Shown here: piece by piece, positions 1-32,687 of the stretch
Layout: each line of letters begins with the position of its first letter
Position numbering within the stretch: the first letter of the stretch is position 1
Virus record (IMG/VR): IMGVR_UViG_3300036835_000650
Span: 1-32,687 of that record
Origin: a virus
Length of the DNA stretch: 32,687 bases
Strand: one strand, 5' to 3'
Translations under genes and position numbers: made by a program
The notes under the pieces: generated by a model
Told to the model about the DNA's origin: nothing
Databases searched by the model: none
Seen by the model: the letters and a program-made list of their open reading frames with translations, nothing else

Positions 1-127
1 GGGGCAGTAGCAGCGGCATGAGCTGGGCCAGGGCGTCACCGAGCACGCCGACGATGGTGTTGATGACCGGCATCAGGGCTTGGAGGACCGAGCCGATGGT
101 CCCGACCAGCGACTGCAGGATCGGCGC
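1..127. repeat. Terminal direct repeat, left copy (circular contig join)
   Basis: These 127 bases are identical to 32561-32687, and the reading frame of the tape-measure gene is continuous across the join. An exact 127-base overlap is what a de Bruijn assembler with a k-mer of 127 leaves when it closes a circle. It is more likely an assembly signature than a biological terminal repeat. The unique sequence is therefore about 32,560 bp. Confidence 0.95.
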
Positions 128-5732: not shown

Positions 5733-5784
5733 GACCACCTCCAAGAGCGATGGGAACCATGGGGTTGCCACCACGCTTGGGGTC

Positions 5785-5801
5785 GCATCACGCCGCACCC
5801 C
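5785..5801. repeat. 17-bp direct repeat, copy 1 (upstream of capsid gene)
   Basis: gcatcacgccgcacccc occurs here and again, identically, at 5861-5877, 76 bases away. Both copies lie in the non-coding leader between scaffold and major capsid genes. They could be protein-binding sites or parts of a structured RNA leader. No function can be assigned. Confidence 0.6.
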
Positions 5802-5860
5802 CGGCGGGCTGGGGACTCACTCCCCTTCGGCTCAACCTCGACGGGTTGTCTCCCGGGGCC

Positions 5861-5877
5861 GCATCACGCCGCACCCC
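5861..5877. repeat. 17-bp direct repeat, copy 2 (upstream of capsid gene)
   Basis: Second exact copy of the 17-mer found at 5785-5801. It begins about 11 bases on the transcript side of the candidate -10 element (5889-5894), so it would fall at or just after a transcription start for the capsid gene. Confidence 0.6.
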
Positions 5878-5888
5878 GGTCGAGCGTC

Positions 5889-5918
5889 AGTATGCGACCG
5901 CCGACACCCGCAGGGCAA
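5889..5918 (-). promoter_or_regulatory. Candidate promoter for the major capsid operon
   Basis: On the minus strand TTGCCC (5918-5913) is followed after 18 bases by CATACT (5894-5889), a fair match to sigma-70-type -35 and -10 boxes. It lies in the only long gap of the head module and points at the major capsid gene 160 bases downstream. The leader would include both 17-bp repeats. Prediction is by consensus only. Confidence 0.35.
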
Positions 5919-5932
5919 GCATCCGCCGCCGC

Positions 5933-5953
5933 AACAAATTTCTGAAATTTGTT
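5933..5953. promoter_or_regulatory. AT-rich perfect inverted repeat at the scaffold stop codon
   Basis: Ten-base arms (aacaaatttc / gaaatttgtt) are separated by one base and form a near-palindrome that is strikingly AT-rich for this genome. It overlaps the TAA stop of the scaffold gene. It lies 15 bases upstream of the candidate capsid promoter. A one-base spacer suits a dimeric DNA-binding protein better than an RNA hairpin, and no T-tract follows, so an operator is favoured over a terminator. Confidence 0.5.
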
Positions 5954-6494
5954 AGGCGTGACCTGCCGCGGCGCGGATGAAGTCGGTGTCAGGGTCCGCG
6001 GTGCGCGCCCCGGGCGGCACCTTCCCGGGGGGCGGTGGCGGCAACGCCGCGGCGAGACGCTCGACGAGCCCGGTGATTGCCTTGGTGTCCGGTTCGCCGT
6101 CGTCCCCGACGAACTTGCCCAGATCGAGGACCTCGAGCGCGGCGCTGGGGTCGGTGATCTTGCCGGCCGCGGCGGCACGGAACTCGGCGGCCGCCAATCG
6201 TTTCCCGGCGGTGAGGATGGCCTCGTTGCGGCCTGCCTCCTTCGCCTCGGCGATCGCCTTGTCCGTCTCGGTCATGTGTTCCCGCTCGAGCTTGTCGAGC
6301 TTCGACTGCAACTCACGGCGCAGCTTGCGCTCATCGCCGAGCGCGGCCTGCAGCTGATCAACCGACTCCTTGGTCTCCTTGCCCGTCCCGTCGCCGGACT
6401 TGGCGTCACTCTTGTCGTCGGGCTTGTCGGGCTTGTCCGACTGCCCGCCCTGGTCGTCCTGCCCGTCGTCGGCCGAGCCCTGCTGGTCGCTCAC
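5952..6494 (-). CDS. Capsid scaffolding protein
   Basis: The 180-residue protein starts at GTG 6494 (GTGA overlap with the upstream gene). Residues 1-45 are a disordered Asp/Gln/Lys-rich segment. Residues 45-105 form a charged coiled coil (ERKLRRELQSKLDKLEREHMTE). The C-terminal half includes GRNEAILTAGKRLAAAEFRAAAAGKITDPSAALEVLDLGKFV, a pattern seen in actinophage scaffolds, and a Pro-rich linker to a final helix. Scaffolds direct procapsid assembly and then leave. The position immediately before the major capsid gene is diagnostic. In-frame sequence upstream of GTG 6494 reads as Arg/Pro-rich shadow and was not included. Confidence 0.85.
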   Translation of the reverse strand: MSDQQGSADDGQDDQGGQSDKPDKPDDKSDAKSGDGTGKETKESVDQLQAALGDERKLRRELQSKLDKLEREHMTETDKAIAEAKEAGRNEAILTAGKRLAAAEFRAAAAGKITDPSAALEVLDLGKFVGDDGEPDTKAITGLVERLAAALPPPPPGKVPPGARTADPDTDFIRAAAGHA

Positions 6495-6757
6495 GACAGC
6501 CCGGCGTCGTGGTAGTTGCGCCACTGCTCGAACAGGTCGCGCTTGGCGGGGTCGAGCTCGAACGGGTCCTCGCCGGCGATCGAAGTGAGGTGGGATTCGC
6601 CCCACAGGATGATGTCCTCGGGGATCCCGTCGGGGAACGACGTGCACGTCGGGGTTTCGCCCGTGGGGTCGATGAGCCGAGCGCATGCGTCGCACAGGTT
6701 GGGGACGTGGATCTCGCCGCCGGTGCGGTCGGTTGGCCTGAGCGCTGGTTCAGTCAT
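6491..6757 (-). CDS. Conserved small protein with Cys motif, head module
   Basis: The 88 residues start at ATG 6757, whose ATGA overlaps the MuF-gene stop. The protein has LCDACARLI, then TCTSFPDGIPEDIILWGESH, then FELDPAKRDLFEQW. The combination of a CxxC knuckle with C-x-x-FPDGIP-x-x-I is known to me from small uncharacterised actinobacterial and phage proteins. The cysteines may bind zinc. Its place between the MuF protein and the scaffold and its tight coupling suggest a role in head assembly, but none is known. Confidence 0.7.
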   Translation of the reverse strand: MTEPALRPTDRTGGEIHVPNLCDACARLIDPTGETPTCTSFPDGIPEDIILWGESHLTSIAGEDPFELDPAKRDLFEQWRNYHDAGLS

Positions 6758-21422: not shown

Positions 21423-21664
21423 GACGCCCGACGACGGCCACGCCGCGGCAACGGCGCCAACCGCGGTGGCGCGGACTCCTGCACGTTGGATTCGACCCAC
21501 GCCGCGACATCGGACGGGCGATACCGGACCGCGTTGCCGACCTTCACGAACCGCGGGCCCGGCAATCGGCGAGCCCGCCAGTCCTTCACCGTCGCCGGGG
21601 CGACATCCAAGAACGCCGCCACCTCATCGGTCGTCAACAACCGATCGTCGGGGTCGCCCGTCAC
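21419..21664 (-). CDS. xis: Excisionase-like MerR/HTH_17 DNA-binding protein
   Basis: The 81 residues start at GTG 21664 (GTGA overlap with the XRE gene). RLLTTDEVAAFLDVAPATVKDWRARRLPGPRFVKVGNAVRYRPSDVAAWVES is the compact winged HTH of phage excisionases and related helix-turn-helix proteins (DEVAxxL-x-V-x-x-x-TV-x-x-WR). A basic tail follows. It likely promotes prophage excision with the integrase on the other strand or regulates the early operon. It is the second gene of the early operon, ready for expression on induction. Confidence 0.78.
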   Translation of the reverse strand: MTGDPDDRLLTTDEVAAFLDVAPATVKDWRARRLPGPRFVKVGNAVRYRPSDVAAWVESNVQESAPPRLAPLPRRGRRRAS

Positions 21665-21927
21665 CGCAGGTCATCCGGGTATGGGAAGAGCAGCCAGACC
21701 GTTGTCTTGAGGATGCGAGCCAATGCGGTTTTCTGCGCGTCGGTTGGTGGGCGAACACCTCGCTCGATCTTCGATACGTAGGACTGGTCGAGTTTCTGAC
21801 CGGTCGCGCGCGCCAACCGTTCGGCGAGCTCAACCTGCGACAGGTCCTGCTCCTTTCGGTAGCGGGTCAGTCGTCGACCCCACTCCGGCAGATCGGGCTC
21901 GAGCGGCAGCACAGTCGTCTTGCTCAT
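21661..21927 (-). CDS. XRE-family (Cro-like) regulator
   Basis: The 88 residues start at ATG 21927 behind cggagg. The centre, WGRRLTRYRKEQDLSQVELAERLARATGQKLDQSYVSKIERGVRPPTDAQKTALARIL, is a classic lambda-repressor-like HTH (QVELAERLARATG, then QSYVSKIERG). It is the first gene of the minus-strand early operon and divergent from a second HTH gene at 22023. This is the usual Cro/CI arrangement, and as the lytic-side member it is probably the Cro analogue. Functional direction is inferred from the map only. Confidence 0.8.
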   Translation of the reverse strand: MSKTTVLPLEPDLPEWGRRLTRYRKEQDLSQVELAERLARATGQKLDQSYVSKIERGVRPPTDAQKTALARILKTTVWLLFPYPDDLR

Positions 21928-22022: not shown

Positions 22023-22733
22023 GTGTGTGGTGAGGACGGCAGGCTGTTGTCTGAGACCGAGGGGCAAGAGGCGGCGGGTCCTCCGGCGAAGGCGTTGGGC
22101 GACGCGATCCGGCGTCGACGCGTCGAGATCCACATTTCGCAGGGCGTGGCGGGTAGCCGCGCGAGCATGGAACAGTCCCAGTGGGGCCGTTACGAGCGGG
22201 GCGAACGGTTCCCGGACTGGTCGACTCTGGAGCGCATCGCATACGCCCTCGAGATCAAGGTCGGCGCGTTATTGGCGTCAGCGCGGCTCATCGAGTGGCC
22301 CGAGTCCTTCCCGGAGTGGGCCGACGGCGATCCGAGCTTGTCGGCTGAAACCCGGGACTTCGAAGAGGACGTCCTCGCAAAACAGGTTCATAGAGTCCTA
22401 CTCTGCAGGACATGGCAAGCATCGACAGGCGACCGAATCGTAAGGACAAGCCGTGGCGGGTGCGGTGGCGGGAGTATCCGGGGGGACCTCAGAAGACGCG
22501 GCACTTCGCCCGGAAGACGGACGCGCAGCGGTTCGGGGCAGTGGTGGAGGCGGACTTGGTGCGGGGCACGTACATCGACCCGTCGCTCGAGCGGCAACGG
22601 TGGGTGGACTACGCGGATGAGTGGGCGGCCGTCCAGGATTGGGAGTGGGGCACCTGGTCGTCGTGGGAGGTGTGTCGCAAACGACTCGTCGGCGTTTTGG
22701 GGGACGTGCCGGTGGGTGCAGTCGATCGGCTGA
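22023..22733 (+). CDS. HTH repressor candidate whose frame runs into the integrase gene
   Basis: A plus-strand frame of up to 236 residues starting at GTG 22023. Other GTG/TTG starts follow within 35 bases. Residues about 20-95 (LGDAIRRRRVEIHISQGVAGSR, EQSQWGRYERGERFPDWSTLERIAYAL) form a credible XRE-type HTH. After about residue 130 the frame overlaps the integrase gene by 322 bases. There it turns Arg/Gly/Ser/Trp-rich, the look of out-of-frame sequence, with no stop near a natural end. It is the probable immunity repressor by position beside int. The absent stop could reflect an integration-dependent design, an assembly error or simple overlap. The 3' end is therefore unreliable. Confidence 0.6.
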   Translation: MCGEDGRLLSETEGQEAAGPPAKALGDAIRRRRVEIHISQGVAGSRASMEQSQWGRYERGERFPDWSTLERIAYALEIKVGALLASARLIEWPESFPEWADGDPSLSAETRDFEEDVLAKQVHRVLLCRTWQASTGDRIVRTSRGGCGGGSIRGDLRRRGTSPGRRTRSGSGQWWRRTWCGARTSTRRSSGNGGWTTRMSGRPSRIGSGAPGRRGRCVANDSSAFWGTCRWVQSIG

Positions 22734-23530
22734 GGTTGCAGCACTGCCAGAAGACGCTGGGCGAGCGTCACAAGCGGTCCACGGTCGTGACGACGATGGA
22801 GTTTGCTCGGGCGGTGATGCGGGCCGCTTACGCCGACGGGCGGATCGGTCGCGACCCGACCGTCGGCCTGCGGATGCCGCGGGCCCGTAACGGCGACGGT
22901 CGCAGCGTGGGTCCGGAACAGGTGCCGACCCGGTCCGAAGCGTTGGCCATCCTCGCTGGCGCGCCGGCGCGGTTCCGTGCCGCGGTGGCGTTGGGTCTCG
23001 CTGGGCTCCGCATCGGGGAAGTCCTCGGGCTCACCGCGGACCGGGTCACGCTGGAGACACGGCAGGTCACCATCGACCGGCAGCTGAAACGGGTGGAGTC
23101 CGAGCGCGTGCTGGCGGAGTCGACGAAGAACGAGAAGGTCCGGACGATCGCGGTCCCGGGGATCGTTGCGGTCGAGCTGCGCCGTCACCTGCGTGATGTG
23201 GCCGGGTCGGGGTTGCTGTTCACCGGGGAACGGACTGGTGAGTCGATGTGGGCGAACACCTTCTACCGGATCGGGTGGCGGCCGGCGCTGGTGGCGGCCG
23301 GCTTCGCGCCGGATCGGTTCAAGTTCCACGCGCTGCGTCACTTCTGCGCGTCGAACCTGTTGGCGGAGGGCGCGCCGATCACGGCGGTTGCCGGGTATCT
23401 CGGCGACGCAGTGCCAACGGTGACCCGGACGTACGCGCACTGGTTGCGCGATGACCGCGAGGTCCCCGCCGCGGTGTTGGACCGCGTTCTCGCGCCGCCG
23501 GCTTCGGATGAAGCCGAGGTGGCGCGATGA
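22412..23530 (+). CDS. int: Tyrosine integrase
   Basis: The 372 residues start at ATG 22412 and contain an N-terminal arm-binding type region (RVRWREYPGGPQKTRHFARKTDAQRF) and a core-binding SAM-like domain (about 65-155). The catalytic domain has R200 in GLAGLRIGEVLGL, K239 in STKNEKV, H306-x-x-R309-H310 in HALRHF and the nucleophile Y341 in TRTYAHW. The usual LGH position reads YLGDAV, with Asp at 332 in place of His. It catalyses phage integration and excision with a partner excisionase. It is followed by a coupled small gene and then the attP candidate. The Asp substitution needs comparison with other actinobacterial integrases. Confidence 0.93.
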   Translation: MASIDRRPNRKDKPWRVRWREYPGGPQKTRHFARKTDAQRFGAVVEADLVRGTYIDPSLERQRWVDYADEWAAVQDWEWGTWSSWEVCRKRLVGVLGDVPVGAVDRLRLQHCQKTLGERHKRSTVVTTMEFARAVMRAAYADGRIGRDPTVGLRMPRARNGDGRSVGPEQVPTRSEALAILAGAPARFRAAVALGLAGLRIGEVLGLTADRVTLETRQVTIDRQLKRVESERVLAESTKNEKVRTIAVPGIVAVELRRHLRDVAGSGLLFTGERTGESMWANTFYRIGWRPALVAAGFAPDRFKFHALRHFCASNLLAEGAPITAVAGYLGDAVPTVTRTYAHWLRDDREVPAAVLDRVLAPPASDEAEVAR

Positions 23531-23973
23531 CGGACCTAGAGCACGTCGACTTCCGCGTCTACGTCGGCGGAGCGCTGGTCGACTCCGTGCGCATCACCTT
23601 CGACGACGATGACACGTGGGGTCGCATGGTCGAGCACGCCGCACGACAGGCCGATCTGTGCCACGCGGCGGGCGTGCGCGGCGTGCCGTGGATGGTCGAG
23701 GTCATCTTCTGGGACGGCGAGCACGTCCGATGGGGCACCGACGTCGACGGCATGGTCGTCCCCGTCGAGATCGGCTTCAGCGAGTTGCTCGACGTGATCA
23801 AATCGACGGCGCGGCGCGTTCGGATGACCGACCCGTTCTTGGCTCTTCCGCAGTTCACCTCGGAAGAGGGTGTAGCGATCTCGGACGCCGTCAAGAGCGC
23901 GATCGCGGTGTACGAGGGCATGCTCAACCTGGCGCAGTTGCTGATCCTCTACAGCTGCAGTTCGACGAGCTGA
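23527..23973 (+). CDS. Hypothetical two-part protein coupled to the integrase
   Basis: The 148 residues start at ATG 23527, whose ATGA overlaps the integrase stop. Residues 1-98 are a mixed alpha/beta domain (HVDFRVYVGGALVDSVRITFDDDDTWGRMVEHA, WMVEVIFWDGEHVRWGTD). Residues 100-148 (MTDPFLALPQFTSEEGVAISDAVKSAIAVYEGMLNLA) match the 73-residue early protein at 13382-13603, with about half the residues identical over 30. The last ten residues are hydrophobic and short compared with the paralogue. The stop lies inside the first attP repeat, so the end seems truncated by that region. An internal ATG at M100 could give a separate product. Function unknown. Confidence 0.7.
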   Translation: MTDLEHVDFRVYVGGALVDSVRITFDDDDTWGRMVEHAARQADLCHAAGVRGVPWMVEVIFWDGEHVRWGTDVDGMVVPVEIGFSELLDVIKSTARRVRMTDPFLALPQFTSEEGVAISDAVKSAIAVYEGMLNLAQLLILYSCSSTS

Positions 23974-24199
23974 GGACCAGCTGAGGACCAGTCCAGTCGG
24001 GCGAGAGCTGAAAGTGCTGGTCAGAGGCGTGAAAAAAGCGTGGTTGTATTCGTCACGCAACTTAATCAGGCGATTTCGTGACCTGCGGCTTTGGCCGGAA
24101 AACCGTCGCTGACCAGCCAAATCACGATGGTAGGGGATGGAGGCCGATGGGCCGAACTGGCTTCGATTGAGGACCAGCTGAGGACCAGCTGAGGAACTG
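23970..24199. other. Candidate attP region with integrase arm-type repeats
   Basis: The 11-mer ctgaggaccag occurs in tandem at 23970-23980 and 23981-23991. On the far side ttgaggaccag, ctgaggaccag and ctgaggaactg follow at 24167-24177, 24178-24188 and 24189-24199. Between them are inverted pairs GCTGGTCAG/CTGACCAGC (24016-24024, 24109-24117) and GTCACG/CGTGAC (24052-24057, 24077-24082) around an AT-rich centre. Two direct-repeat clusters flanking an inverted-repeat core is the layout of tyrosine-integrase attP sites. The position just 3' of the integrase operon agrees. No coding sequence is visible, and no tRNA-like core was recognised. Confidence 0.62.
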
Positions 24200-24902: not shown

Positions 24903-25030
24903 TCAGAATGATCCCCCAGTGTGGTAAATGCAATAGGTCTGCCTGAAGATCTGGCAGAATCCTCGTCTGCATGGTAGACATGCCTAGGTTTGTCCTGCCA
25001 TAGTGTGCAGGTAGCCAGAGGAGGATGCGC
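24903..25030. promoter_or_regulatory. Divergent promoter region between the minus unit and the DUF5343 operon
   Basis: This 128-bp gap is the least GC-rich stretch nearby. Plus-strand candidate boxes are TAGACA (24975-24980) and CATAGT (24999-25004), 18 bases apart, leading to the RBS gaggagg. A minus-strand TTGCAT-17-CATTCT faces the other way. Short inverted repeats occur: TCTGCC/GGCAGA near 24937-24957, GCATG/CATGC near 24969-24983, CCTGC/GCAGG near 24994-25011. They could be operators that keep one direction active in lysogens. Confidence 0.45.
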
Positions 25031-25738
25031 ATGCCTGAGGACCTGGACCTCGAGAAACCGCCGTACCTGTCGCTGACGACGCTCAATCACTTCTTCGATC
25101 GATGGGGTGAGGGTCCGGTTCCGCCGCGGATCGACAAGAGCGCCTTGGACAAGTACAGCGGGGGGACGCAAGCCGTGTTGATGAGCACCCTGCGCTTGAT
25201 GAGCCTCGTCGACGGCGACGGCGTCGTGCTGCCCGCGCTGCGTTCGGCGGTGGCCAGCGAAGCCGACCGTAAGGCAATCCTCCGAGAGTGGGCCAGCCAA
25301 TTCTATGCCGAGCAGGTGCAGTTGGCAGAGCAGAACGCGACGGCTCAGATGCTGCACGAGTCGTTCGCAAAATATGGGTATAGCGGGTCGACGCTCCGCA
25401 AGGCAGTGGTGTTCTACCTGCAGTTGGTCGAGTACGTGGGCCTTCCGAACAGTCCGCTGTTCCGGGCACCGAAGCAGTCCGTGACGTCGAGCACAAAGCG
25501 TCGGCCTCGCGCTGCGGCTCCGATGGCCCCGGCCACCGGCACCGCGCACGGGCATGAGCTCCAGAGTCCAGCAGCGCCGAAGGGCGAAACCACGGTCGTG
25601 CACATCAACGGCCTCGCGACCATCACGGTCATCGTGGATGCTCAGTGGATGAAGCTGCCGGTGGAGACCATCACATCGATGCGCAAAGCGATTGCCGAGC
25701 TCGAGGCGCTCGACACCGGGGCGCCAGCGCAGCCGTGA
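25031..25738 (+). CDS. DUF5343-like protein, first gene of an accessory plus-strand operon
   Basis: The 235 residues start at the second of two ATGs (25031), because gaggagg abuts the first and is correctly spaced for the second. Residues 9-75 (KPPYLSLTTLNHFFDRWGEGPVPPRIDKSALDKYSGGTQAVLMSTLRLMSLVDGDG) and 75-145 (ILREWASQFYAEQVQ, MLHESFAKYGYSGSTLRKAVVFYLQLVEYVGL) match my memory of DUF5343, a winged-helix-like family of unknown function. After a basic Pro/Ala linker comes a C-terminal module (ATITVIVDAQWMKLPVETITSMRKAIAELEAL). It is coupled by GTGA to the next gene. As cargo next to attP it may act in lysogenic conversion or immunity. Confidence 0.7.
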   Translation: MPEDLDLEKPPYLSLTTLNHFFDRWGEGPVPPRIDKSALDKYSGGTQAVLMSTLRLMSLVDGDGVVLPALRSAVASEADRKAILREWASQFYAEQVQLAEQNATAQMLHESFAKYGYSGSTLRKAVVFYLQLVEYVGLPNSPLFRAPKQSVTSSTKRRPRAAAPMAPATGTAHGHELQSPAAPKGETTVVHINGLATITVIVDAQWMKLPVETITSMRKAIAELEALDTGAPAQP

Positions 25739-26013
25739 ACTATCGCTTCTTCGATTTCCACGAGCGTTACGACCAGTGGGTCGACGCCGACGGCCCTTCC
25801 GTCGACTTCCGGTTCTGGGTGATGGCTTGGCTGTTCCGGCTTCAGGACGATCCAAGGGTCGATGCCGCACCAGCTGACGAGCTGGGCGAGCCGTGGTGGT
25901 TTGCTCGCATCCCACACGCCGAGGACGACGCCTTCGCCATCGTCTGCCTCTACGCGATCGACGGCGAAGAGGTTCGTTGCAGCTGCTTCACGACGTTGCG
26001 GAAGCCGATCTGA
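25735..26013 (+). CDS. Unrecognised 92-residue protein coupled to the DUF5343-like gene
   Basis: GTG 25735 overlaps the upstream TGA as GTGA. The protein reads NYRFFDFHERYDQWVDADGPSVDFRFWVMAWLFRLQDDPR, then EPWWFARIPHAEDDAFAIVCLYAIDGEEVRCSCFTTLRKPI. A helical first half is followed by three or four strands ending in C-S-C-F-x-T-L, a plan loosely like small RelE/ParE-type toxins. No catalytic motif confirms this. Tight coupling to the upstream gene suggests the two products work together. Family unknown. Confidence 0.65.
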   Translation: MNYRFFDFHERYDQWVDADGPSVDFRFWVMAWLFRLQDDPRVDAAPADELGEPWWFARIPHAEDDAFAIVCLYAIDGEEVRCSCFTTLRKPI

Positions 26014-26035
26014 CTGCCGCTCATCAACGCGGTCG

Positions 26036-26055
26036 GTGCGCGCGATCGCGCGCAC
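26036..26055. promoter_or_regulatory. Perfect 20-bp palindrome
   Basis: The half-site is GTGCGCGCGA, perfectly mirrored (26036-26045 / 26046-26055). It lies 22 bases after the 92-residue gene stop and 52 bases before the next plus-strand start. The 11-mer gatcgcgcgca recurs at 24244-24254 on the far side of the accessory block. A dimeric regulator site or a transcript end is possible. Confidence 0.45.
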
Positions 26056-26107: not shown

Positions 26108-26230
26108 ATGAGCGAGCAGACCGACCCGAACCAAGAGCCCAAGGCTCCGGACACCGAGCCTTCCAAGGACCCGGACGAGGATGACAGCGGCGCTGGCCAT
26201 GAGGGGCCCGCGGCTCCCCCCGGCAGCTGA
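26108..26230 (+). CDS. Small acidic disordered protein (40 residues)
   Basis: ATG 26108 begins a peptide rich in Asp, Glu, Pro and Ser (SEQTDPNQEPKAPDTEPSKD) with no hydrophobic core. It ends two bases from the stop of the convergent minus-strand lysis gene. Composition is unlike neighbouring shadow frames, which are Arg-rich, supporting a real gene. ggatgggg lies 13-20 bases upstream as a poor RBS. Similar acidic tails occur in phage DNA-mimic and anti-restriction peptides, but that is speculation. Confidence 0.4.
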   Translation: MSEQTDPNQEPKAPDTEPSKDPDEDDSGAGHEGPAAPPGS

Positions 26231-31050: not shown

Positions 31051-32687
31051 ACTCGCTGGGTCTGCGCGACCCACGCCGCTTGGCGCATGAACGCCTCCAC
31101 GTCGAGCTCGGTGGCGAAGTTGGCGTTCTCCACCACGACGGCGGGGCCTCCCGCGCCGGCCGCCGGGGTCGGCACCGCACTCGGCGTGAGGCCACCGAAG
31201 CTGGTGGGAGCGTTGACGTCGAGCAGGTTGTTGAGAGCGGCGTCCACCGCCGGCTGCGACGACGTGATGCCCTCGGCGATCCCCTCACCGATGTTGGCTC
31301 CGCCTTCCTCGGGCGGATGGGTGTGCAGCGGCCCCTCCTTGGCGGGCGACCACGGCAGGAAGTCGGTGATCGAGCCCACGATGTCGCCGATCTTGTCCTT
31401 CACCGCCCCGATCATCGAACCCATGCCGTCGATGAGGCCCTGAATGATGTTCTTCCCGGCGTTGAAGAGGGTGCTGGCCAGGTCGCCGACGGCGCCGAGA
31501 ATCTTGCCCGGCAGCGTCGAGAGCCAGCTCCACAGCCCCTCGGCCCCCGAGACCACGCCGTTGATGAGGCCACTGAGCAGCTCCCGGCCTTTGATGATGA
31601 GCATCATCGGGAAGGCGACGAGCCACAGCAGGATCTGGCCCGGCAGCGACGAGAACCAGCTGAGCACCGTCGAGCCGATCGACTGGATCACGCTCCACAT
31701 GCCGCTCATGGCCGCCGTGAAGATGCCCAGGATCATCGACGGCAGGCCGCTCAGGGCACCCCAGATGATGCCGGGGAGGTCGGAGAAGTTCTTCTCGACC
31801 CAGGTGATCGCCCCCACCACGTAGGTCAGCAGCTGGGTGGCGAAGGTGACGATGACGGCGGTGAAGTTGGCGACCAGGGTGATGAGCTGGGTCAGCGGCG
31901 GGATGATGAGCATGAGCAGCTGCACGATGGGCGGCAGCAGCGCGGCTACCAGCTGCACGATGGGCGGCAGCAGCGGCAGGATGGCCTGGAGCAGCTGGAG
32001 GACGAGGTTGATGATCGGAGGCAGGATCGGCATCAGGGCCGCCAGCACCTGACCGACGAGCTGCAGCAGGGCGTCGATCACCGGCATCAACGCCACGAAC
32101 ACCTGCTGGAGCACTCCCGCCAGCTCGTTGATGATGGGGATCAGGATCGGCAGGGCCTGGGCCAGCACCCCCGCCAGCAGGTTCGCCAGCGTCGTGATGA
32201 TGGGCAGCAGGGCCTTCATGGCCCCGTTGAGCACGGTGCCGAGCACCTTGGCCAGGGTGGCGATGAGCGGCACCAGGGCGGGCAGCACCGCCGCCAGGGT
32301 CGAGGCGATGACCTCGGCCAGAGTCTGGATGGCGGGCAGGATGGCCGACAGCGCCCCCGACAGCACGTCGCCGATGACCTTGGCCAGCTGGCCCACGACG
32401 GGCATCAGGGCCTTGAGGACTCCGCCCAGGGTGGTCAGGATCGACATGACCGAGGGCAGCACGGCGGCGAGGGCGTCGCCGATGATCGAGGCCAGGGTCT
32501 GCACGAAGGGGGCGAGGGCCTGGAACGCCCCCACCAGGGCCGAGCCGATGATGTTGACCAGGGGCAGTAGCAGCGGCATGAGCTGGGCCAGGGCGTCACC
32601 GAGCACGCCGACGATGGTGTTGATGACCGGCATCAGGGCTTGGAGGACCGAGCCGATGGTCCCGACCAGCGACTGCAGGATCGGCGC
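31047..32687 (-). CDS. Tail tape measure protein, C-terminal part (gene begins at 1516, crosses the contig join)
   Basis: Continuation of the gene that starts at GTG 1516. The bases 32561-32687 repeat 1-127, so the unique part here is 31047-32560. Codon phase is identical on both sides of the join. The first half is a series of about 18-24-residue hydrophobic segments, each headed by L-x-P (LMPVINTIVGVLGDALAQ, LPAIQTLAEVIASTLAAV and similar). A tail domain follows with TLPGKILGAVGDLAS, KNIIQGLIDGMGSMIGAVKDKI and DFLPWSPAKEGPLHTHPPEEGG, where SPAKEGPL is a frequent tape-measure motif. No lysozyme or peptidase motif was found. The gene ends with ATGA overlap to the distal tail gene. Confidence 0.93.
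   Translation of the reverse strand, partial: APILQSLVGTIGSVLQALMPVINTIVGVLGDALAQLMPLLLPLVNIIGSALVGAFQALAPFVQTLASIIGDALAAVLPSVMSILTTLGGVLKALMPVVGQLAKVIGDVLSGALSAILPAIQTLAEVIASTLAAVLPALVPLIATLAKVLGTVLNGAMKALLPIITTLANLLAGVLAQALPILIPIINELAGVLQQVFVALMPVIDALLQLVGQVLAALMPILPPIINLVLQLLQAILPLLPPIVQLVAALLPPIVQLLMLIIPPLTQLITLVANFTAVIVTFATQLLTYVVGAITWVEKNFSDLPGIIWGALSGLPSMILGIFTAAMSGMWSVIQSIGSTVLSWFSSLPGQILLWLVAFPMMLIIKGRELLSGLINGVVSGAEGLWSWLSTLPGKILGAVGDLASTLFNAGKNIIQGLIDGMGSMIGAVKDKIGDIVGSITDFLPWSPAKEGPLHTHPPEEGGANIGEGIAEGITSSQPAVDAALNNLLDVNAPTSFGGLTPSAVPTPAAGAGGPAVVVENANFATELDVEAFMRQAAWVAQTQRV
32561..32687. repeat. Terminal direct repeat, right copy
   Basis: Exact copy of 1-127. See the left copy for the interpretation as an assembly overlap of a circular molecule. 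Confidence 0.95.

What the first reader, a model, noticed from the sequence alone, without database searches (positions are those of the whole stretch)
24903..26055. Candidate undescribed two-gene system: DUF5343-like protein plus a coupled 92-residue protein
A dedicated promoter region, strong RBS, GTGA coupling and a terminal palindrome mark an independent plus-strand operon among minus-strand genes. It lies between the attP candidate and the lysis genes. Once integrated, it would be at a prophage end, a typical site for immunity, toxin-antitoxin or defence genes. DUF5343 has no assigned function that I know of, and the 92-residue partner is unrecognised, with a helix-then-sheet plan loosely like small RelE/ParE toxins.
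Basis: inference. Interest (0 to 1): 0.7.

Follow-up and report, generated by a model that had tools for sequence, protein, structure and literature searches.

The report
Phage two-gene module, DUF5343-like plus ORFan
A phage of actinobacteria carries a two-gene accessory cassette whose first gene is a distant relative of the first gene of a predicted, still untested anti-phage system, and whose second gene is a small protein seen nowhere else we searched.

Summary
The operon is real: two overlapping plus-strand genes (A, 25031-25738, 235 aa; B, 25735-26013, 92 aa) with coding-type codon composition, a ribosome-binding site and a promoter-like site. The 20-nt palindrome exists but is not terminator-like. 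The window is a complete circular phage genome of 32,560 bp.

Gene A is a divergent DUF5343-like protein. Only its first ~85 residues match (15.6 bits; best of 2000 shuffles 6.3; best unrelated ORF 4.0), and the model is winged-helix-like there. It stays below Pfam's cut-off; its C-terminus does not match.

DUF5343 is not blank: it is gene A of PADLOC's candidate defence system PDC-M34. In my survey 14 of 17 DUF5343 genes had a coupled or fused HEPN-type partner; one had a bSEFIR partner. Gene B is neither; it has no detectable relatives and only a twilight resemblance to ParE/RelE toxins.

Relatives of this phage lack both genes. Best reading: an accessory module, regulator/sensor plus small effector, working like a toxin-antitoxin or abortive-infection pair. 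Function was not tested. Membership in PDC-M34 or the RelE family is not established.

The parts
24903..25030 (+). intergenic leader between a divergent minus-strand gene and gene A; five short dyads (arms of 5, spacer up to 12)
   Evidence: 5 dyads against 1.55 expected, 37 of 1000 shuffles reach 5 (weak); possible operator, inferred
24975..25004 (+). promoter-like site TAGACA-18-CATAGT with TG before the second hexamer
   Evidence: 9 of 12 consensus positions; 2 sites found in the region against 0.2 in shuffles
25017..25024 (+). Shine-Dalgarno AGAGGAGG, 6 nt before ATG 25031
   Evidence: sequence
25031..25738 (+). gene A: 235-aa divergent DUF5343-like protein (alternative start 25025)
25070..25276 (+). 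residues 14-82 of A: winged-helix-like region, the only part that matches DUF5343 by profile (residues 9-87)
   Evidence: alignment; pLDDT 74-86; winged-helix regulators at Z 2.3-3.4 (low)
25448..25585 (+). residues about 140-185 of A: Pro/Ala/Arg-rich linker, predicted disordered
   Evidence: pLDDT about 30-38
25586..25717 (+). C-terminal segment of A (strand-like stretch then helix 211-229); same plan as canonical DUF5343 C-terminus but no sequence match
   Evidence: -0.7 bits, 242 of 2000 shuffles as good
25735..25738 (+). GTGA overlap of A stop and B start (translational coupling, inferred)
   Evidence: sequence
25735..26013 (+). gene B: 92-aa protein with no detectable relatives; predicted helix-helix-strand-strand-strand (low confidence)
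26036..26055 (.). 20-nt perfect palindrome GTGCGCGCGATCGCGCGCAC; role unknown, not terminator-like

Best explanation
A and B form an accessory module that the prophage would express from its own promoter. A is a winged-helix-type regulator or sensor that keeps the small effector B in check and probably represses its own promoter; B is the effector, which harms or stalls the cell when A's hold is lost, for example when another phage infects. In kind this works like a type II toxin-antitoxin or abortive-infection pair, with the same plan as DUF5343-HEPN (PDC-M34) but with a different, unrecognised effector. Shown: two coupled real genes, N-terminal DUF5343-like homology of A, DUF5343 genes usually heading coupled pairs with exchangeable second genes (HEPN-type proteins of more than one kind, one bSEFIR), and absence of the module from related phages. 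Inferred: expression in lysogeny, contact between A and B, DNA binding by A, toxicity of B, defence function.
For: A matches a DUF5343 profile at 15.6 bits; best of 2000 shuffles 6.3, best of about 870 unrelated ORFs 4.0; BLASTP with one DUF5343 protein E 2e-4 as a single comparison. DUF5343 proteins score as PADLOC PDC-M34A (E 1e-10 to 2e-51), and their downstream genes as PDC-M34B / HEPN_Swt1 with the HEPN Rx4-6H-type motif. Partners are coupled (26-nt overlap to 4-nt gap) or fused: 14 of 17 loci HEPN-type, one bSEFIR (E 7e-19), one without partner, one cut off. All 7 viral-contig loci carry the HEPN pair: in L040 beside a CI-type repressor and a KilAC antirepressor gene (L041 is laid out almost identically), in L087 beside Drt5, in L090 beside a terminase. 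Order and coupling in the window are the same. The module is missing from four phages with the same structural genes (portal 68-70%) and from a phage with a related integrase: an accessory slot. GC dips to 0.60-0.65 here against about 0.70 around. Prophage defence genes near the prophage ends are known in mycobacteriophages (PMC6426596).
Against: A is below Pfam's cut-off, has no PADLOC hit, and its C-terminus does not match the family. B has no relatives, so co-occurrence of A and B beyond this one genome cannot be shown. B has no established fold (pLDDT 46). PDC-M34 itself is a prediction; I found no paper that tests it. Defence is inferred from company kept.
Confidence: 0.45

Rival explanations
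1. A and B are phage housekeeping regulators: A is a winged-helix transcription regulator of the lysis-lysogeny or late-gene circuit and B a small co-regulator or antirepressor-like partner, without any defence role.
For: A's N-terminus models as a winged helix; the pair lies between integration and lysis genes, where regulators also sit; the leader has a slight excess of dyads.
Against: The phage already has two HTH genes (21661-21927 and 22023-22733) at its immunity region; related phages with the same structural genes lack A and B, so the pair is dispensable.
Confidence: 0.25
2. A classical type II toxin-antitoxin pair: B is a very divergent ParE/RelE-superfamily toxin and A an unusual antitoxin that is also the autorepressor.
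For: Predicted order of elements helix-helix-three strands (low confidence); ParE profile 8.3 bits, 0 of 3000 shuffles as good; hhalign E 0.0015 for the single comparison over residues 28-81; antitoxin-first order with overlap.
Against: Pfam, PHROGs and PDB sequence searches do not find RelE; a HigB/Gp49 profile gives -0.5 bits, no better than shuffles; HHalign probability only 17%; a few unrelated ORFs among about 1600 score as high or higher with the ParE profile, while true ParE members left out of the profile score 24-83 bits.
Confidence: 0.18
3. B is an unrelated ORFan that merely sits downstream of A (co-transcribed moron); the two do not work together.
For: B has no relatives and no recognisable family; phage genes often overlap by 4 bases (general knowledge).
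Against: DUF5343 genes in 15 of 16 complete cases have a coupled or fused partner (and the ORF lists), so a working partner is the family habit; B shows coding-type composition like A.
Confidence: 0.12

Closest known systems
PDC-M34 (PADLOC-DB 2.0 phage defence candidate): M34A = DUF5343, M34B = HEPN_Swt1
   Same: A-first two-gene order, overlapping or nearly overlapping genes, DUF5343-like N-terminus in A, linker then short C-terminal strand-helix plan, carried by temperate phages as an accessory module
   Different: A is far below the family cut-off and its C-terminus does not match; B is 92 aa, not a ~190-aa HEPN protein, and lacks a HEPN motif at the usual place
DUF5343 + bSEFIR pair
   Same: shows that a DUF5343 gene can head a pair with a non-HEPN second gene
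   Different: the second gene there is a SEFIR/TIR-type protein; B resembles neither; the DUF5343 reading frame there has an apparent frameshift
ParE/RelE/HigB toxins (type II toxin-antitoxin)
   Same: small protein, predicted helix-helix-strands plan, coupled second gene
   Different: no significant sequence match; A is not like any antitoxin of these toxins that I know of
Lysogenically expressed defence genes near prophage ends of mycobacteriophages (for example Sbash, PMC6426596)
   Same: position near the integration region at the prospective prophage end, variable between related phages
   Different: different genes; no experiment here

Membership tests
DUF5343 (PF17278) | Pfam gathering score of 27 bits over a ~140-residue domain | tested here: not met
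   12.3 bits, E 0.22, residues 13-114 against profile 1-106 of 140
DUF5343 (PF17278) | N-terminal similarity above chance | tested here: met
   15.6 bits with a 13-sequence profile; shuffles at most 6.3; unrelated ORFs at most 4.0
DUF5343 (PF17278) | C-terminal motif INLxLP..D..VF.AIF.SL.E.LL seen in my survey set (not part of the Pfam model) | tested here: not met
   -0.7 bits, 242 of 2000 shuffles as good
PDC-M34 | A gene recognised by PADLOC PDC-M34A models | tested here: not met
   no hit for gene A up to E 10, while canonical DUF5343 proteins hit
PDC-M34 | B gene is a HEPN_Swt1 protein (PDC-M34B) | tested here: not met
   gene B: no Pfam or PADLOC hit; 92 aa; its only Rx4-6H stretch is R4-H9 at the N-terminus, unlike the C-terminal RGPIAH-type motif of the family
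PDC-M34 | two coupled genes, A first | tested here: met
   GTGA overlap at 25735-25738; survey partners overlap or lie within 4 nt
PDC-M34 | anti-phage activity | not testable with these tools
   needs an experiment; no paper in the library names DUF5343 or PDC-M34
ParE/RelE superfamily | significant profile match of B | tested here: inconclusive
   8.3 bits with a ParE profile, above 3000 shuffles but within reach of unrelated ORFs; HigB/Gp49 profile negative
ParE/RelE superfamily | RelE fold | tested here: inconclusive
   model pLDDT 46, order HHEEE; structural matches carry no weight, one HigB2 row at Z 2.8 among many unrelated
Type II toxin-antitoxin system | B toxic, A neutralises B and represses the promoter | not testable with these tools
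   experiment needed; only a slight excess of dyads in the leader

The most novel reading that the evidence does not exclude
DUF5343-type winged-helix proteins are a general chassis for two-gene immunity modules with exchangeable effectors (HEPN-type proteins, SEFIR), and gene B is the first member of a new, very small effector class on that chassis, carried by a phage to protect its lysogen.
Probability: 0.3. Interest if true: 0.65.

Novelty: new variant of a known kind. Interest (0 to 1): 0.45.

Why it matters
If right, it ties a domain of unknown function to an effector-swapping immunity architecture and gives a compact (about 1 kb) two-gene unit that can be tested directly. It would also add a small effector with no known relatives. 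The survey result, that DUF5343 genes head coupled pairs with HEPN-type proteins of more than one kind and once with bSEFIR, is useful whatever gene B turns out to be.

Tried and rejected
Single-sequence searches for relatives of A and B in viral contigs, phages, plasmids and bacterial/archaeal genomes: none (hits lie mostly in the low-complexity linker, and a FadR-like gene, L006, was a false lead). HigB/Gp49 identity of B: not supported by profile score. PDB phmmer hits of B to MBT repeats (E 0.08) are chance-level over 24 residues. HEPN identity of B: no Pfam or PADLOC match, and the motif is not where it should be. Foldseek with the model of A: no match at E 0.001, the disordered linker dominates; the VIA-align second look gave winged-helix regulators over residues 14-82 but only at Z 2.3-3.4. 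Terminator reading of the palindrome: not supported. A first three-sequence alignment of A (A3) was plainly wrong and not used. PDC-M34 and DUF5343 in the paper library: no papers.

Full report
What the window is. The record is a virus contig of 32,687 bases with an exact 127-base repeat at its two ends; dropping one copy lets the tape-measure gene read through, so it is a complete circular genome of 32,560 bases. The large terminase is closest to those of actinobacterial phages (39.8% to Streptomyces phage Samy at best), and the only genome-contig relative found was in a Solirubrobacteraceae MAG. Portal and capsid are recognised by Pfam. A tyrosine integrase (22412-23530), two HTH genes, a PD-(D/E)XK exonuclease and a weak RecT match complete a temperate phage layout.

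The observation. Two plus-strand genes are there. A most likely starts at ATG 25031, because the earlier ATG 25025 touches the AGAGGAGG ribosome-binding site. A ends at 25738; B starts at GTG 25735 and ends at 26013. GC by codon position is coding-like in frame for both. A promoter-like site lies at 24975-25004. The 20-nt palindrome at 26036-26055 is real, but as long a one occurs in 5 of 30 shuffles of the window; it has no T-run and does not fold better than chance. The region is lower in GC (0.60-0.65) than its surroundings.

What A is. Pfam's DUF5343 is the only family that comes up, at E 0.22 and 12.3 bits, below the cut-off of 27. I built a profile from 13 DUF5343 proteins found here. 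A scores 15.6 bits; the best of 2000 shuffled copies scores 6.3 and the best of about 870 unrelated ORFs scores 4.0. The match covers residues 9-87 only. The C-terminal strand-helix motif that the other members share is not recognisable in A, though A has the same plan: N-terminal domain, disordered Pro/Ala/Arg linker, C-terminal helix. The AlphaFold model of residues 11-90 has pLDDT 74-86, and the solved structures that align to residues 14-82 are mostly winged-helix proteins (GntR-, DtxR- and MarR-type regulators), at low Z of 2.3-3.4. I take A as a divergent DUF5343-like, probably winged-helix, protein. It is not a member by Pfam's rule.

What DUF5343 keeps company with. In 396 genomes spread over the phylum, 5 had a DUF5343 gene; in 395 genomes of one class, 6. 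PADLOC models name canonical DUF5343 proteins PDC-M34A, a phage-defence candidate, and their downstream genes PDC-M34B with a Swt1-type HEPN domain. Of 17 distinct loci, six genome loci have a separate coupled HEPN-type gene (L035, L036, L037, L042, L043, L044; in L036, L037 and L044 the Pfam support is weak or absent and the call rests on the R-H motif and their mutual likeness, which is my reading). One has a HEPN-like region fused to DUF5343 (L045), one a bSEFIR gene (L046, PADLOC E 7e-19, with a frame break in the DUF5343 gene), one no partner (L038), and one is cut off (L039). All seven viral-contig loci (L085-L091) have the Swt1-type HEPN partner (three of them confirmed by Pfam and PADLOC). 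In L040 the pair sits between a CI-type repressor and a KilAC antirepressor gene, in L087 next to Drt5, in L090 near a terminase small subunit, and L036 lies near a restriction-type nuclease. HEPN partners carry the Rx4-6H motif that marks RNase-type HEPN proteins (PMC3710099). So DUF5343 heads coupled pairs with exchangeable, toxin-like second genes.

What B is. B has no match in Pfam, PADLOC or NCBIfam, a chance-level one in PHROGs (E 0.66), and nothing in the PDB sequences, phages, plasmids, viral contigs or 396 genomes that bears on it. It is not HEPN or SEFIR by these tests. A single-sequence model is poor (pLDDT 46) but has the order helix, helix, three strands. Against a ParE/RelE profile from 19 sequences B scores 8.3 bits, above all 3000 shuffles, and hhalign gives E 0.0015 with probability 17% over residues 28-81. 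But a few unrelated ORFs of about 1600 reach the same score, true members left out of the profile score 24-83 bits, and a HigB/Gp49 profile gives nothing. I call this a lead only.

Is the pair accessory? Phages that share the structural genes (portal 68-70%, capsid 54-59%: G760, G762, G765, G771) have no detectable A or B; their stretch between tail and replication genes holds other genes and a serine-type recombinase (the recombinase call is mine from sequence). A phage with a related integrase and HTH gene (L004) has another plus-strand gene between integrase and amidase and no A or B. Both searches would miss very distant forms. The pair therefore behaves as cargo in a variable slot, as do lysogenically expressed defence genes near prophage ends in mycobacteriophages (PMC6426596).

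Mechanism I commit to (about 0.45): A restrains B and probably its own promoter through the winged-helix region; loss of restraint on infection by another phage frees B to stop the cell. The first part rests on family company and gene order; toxicity, binding and defence are inference. Rivals are a purely regulatory pair, a classical ParE/RelE-type toxin-antitoxin pair, and an unrelated passenger gene B.

Verdict. Real operon, partly right interpretation, not fully undescribed: a new variant on a catalogued but untested candidate system, with an unknown second gene. Interest is moderate.

Noticed in passing
window 1-127 and 32561-32687: Exact 127-bp direct repeat at the contig ends; the tape-measure gene reads through once one copy is dropped, so the genome is complete and circular at 32,560 bp.
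   Followed up: yes
window 23964-23998 and 24161-24195: Two clusters of an 11-bp repeat (GACCAGCTGAG) about 200 bp apart after the integrase gene; possible integrase arm sites around attP.
   Followed up: no
window 26108-26230 (+): 40-aa acidic, Pro-rich ORF directly after the palindrome on the same strand; could be a third gene of the operon.
   Followed up: no
L087 3001-5866: DUF5343-HEPN pair directly followed by a Drt5 reverse transcriptase gene in a viral contig: a small defence island.
   Followed up: partly
L046 1312-2961: DUF5343 gene (frame-broken in this assembly) overlapping a bSEFIR gene, a second gene unlike the HEPN partner of PDC-M34.
   Followed up: partly
L045 1012-2349 (-): DUF5343 domain and a HEPN-like region fused in one reading frame.
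   Followed up: partly
L004 about 5760-6693 (+): A ~315-aa plus-strand protein right after the integrase of a related phage (possible winged-helix start, Pro/Glu repeats, coiled coil), in the slot that holds genes A and B in the window; no Pfam match.
   Followed up: partly
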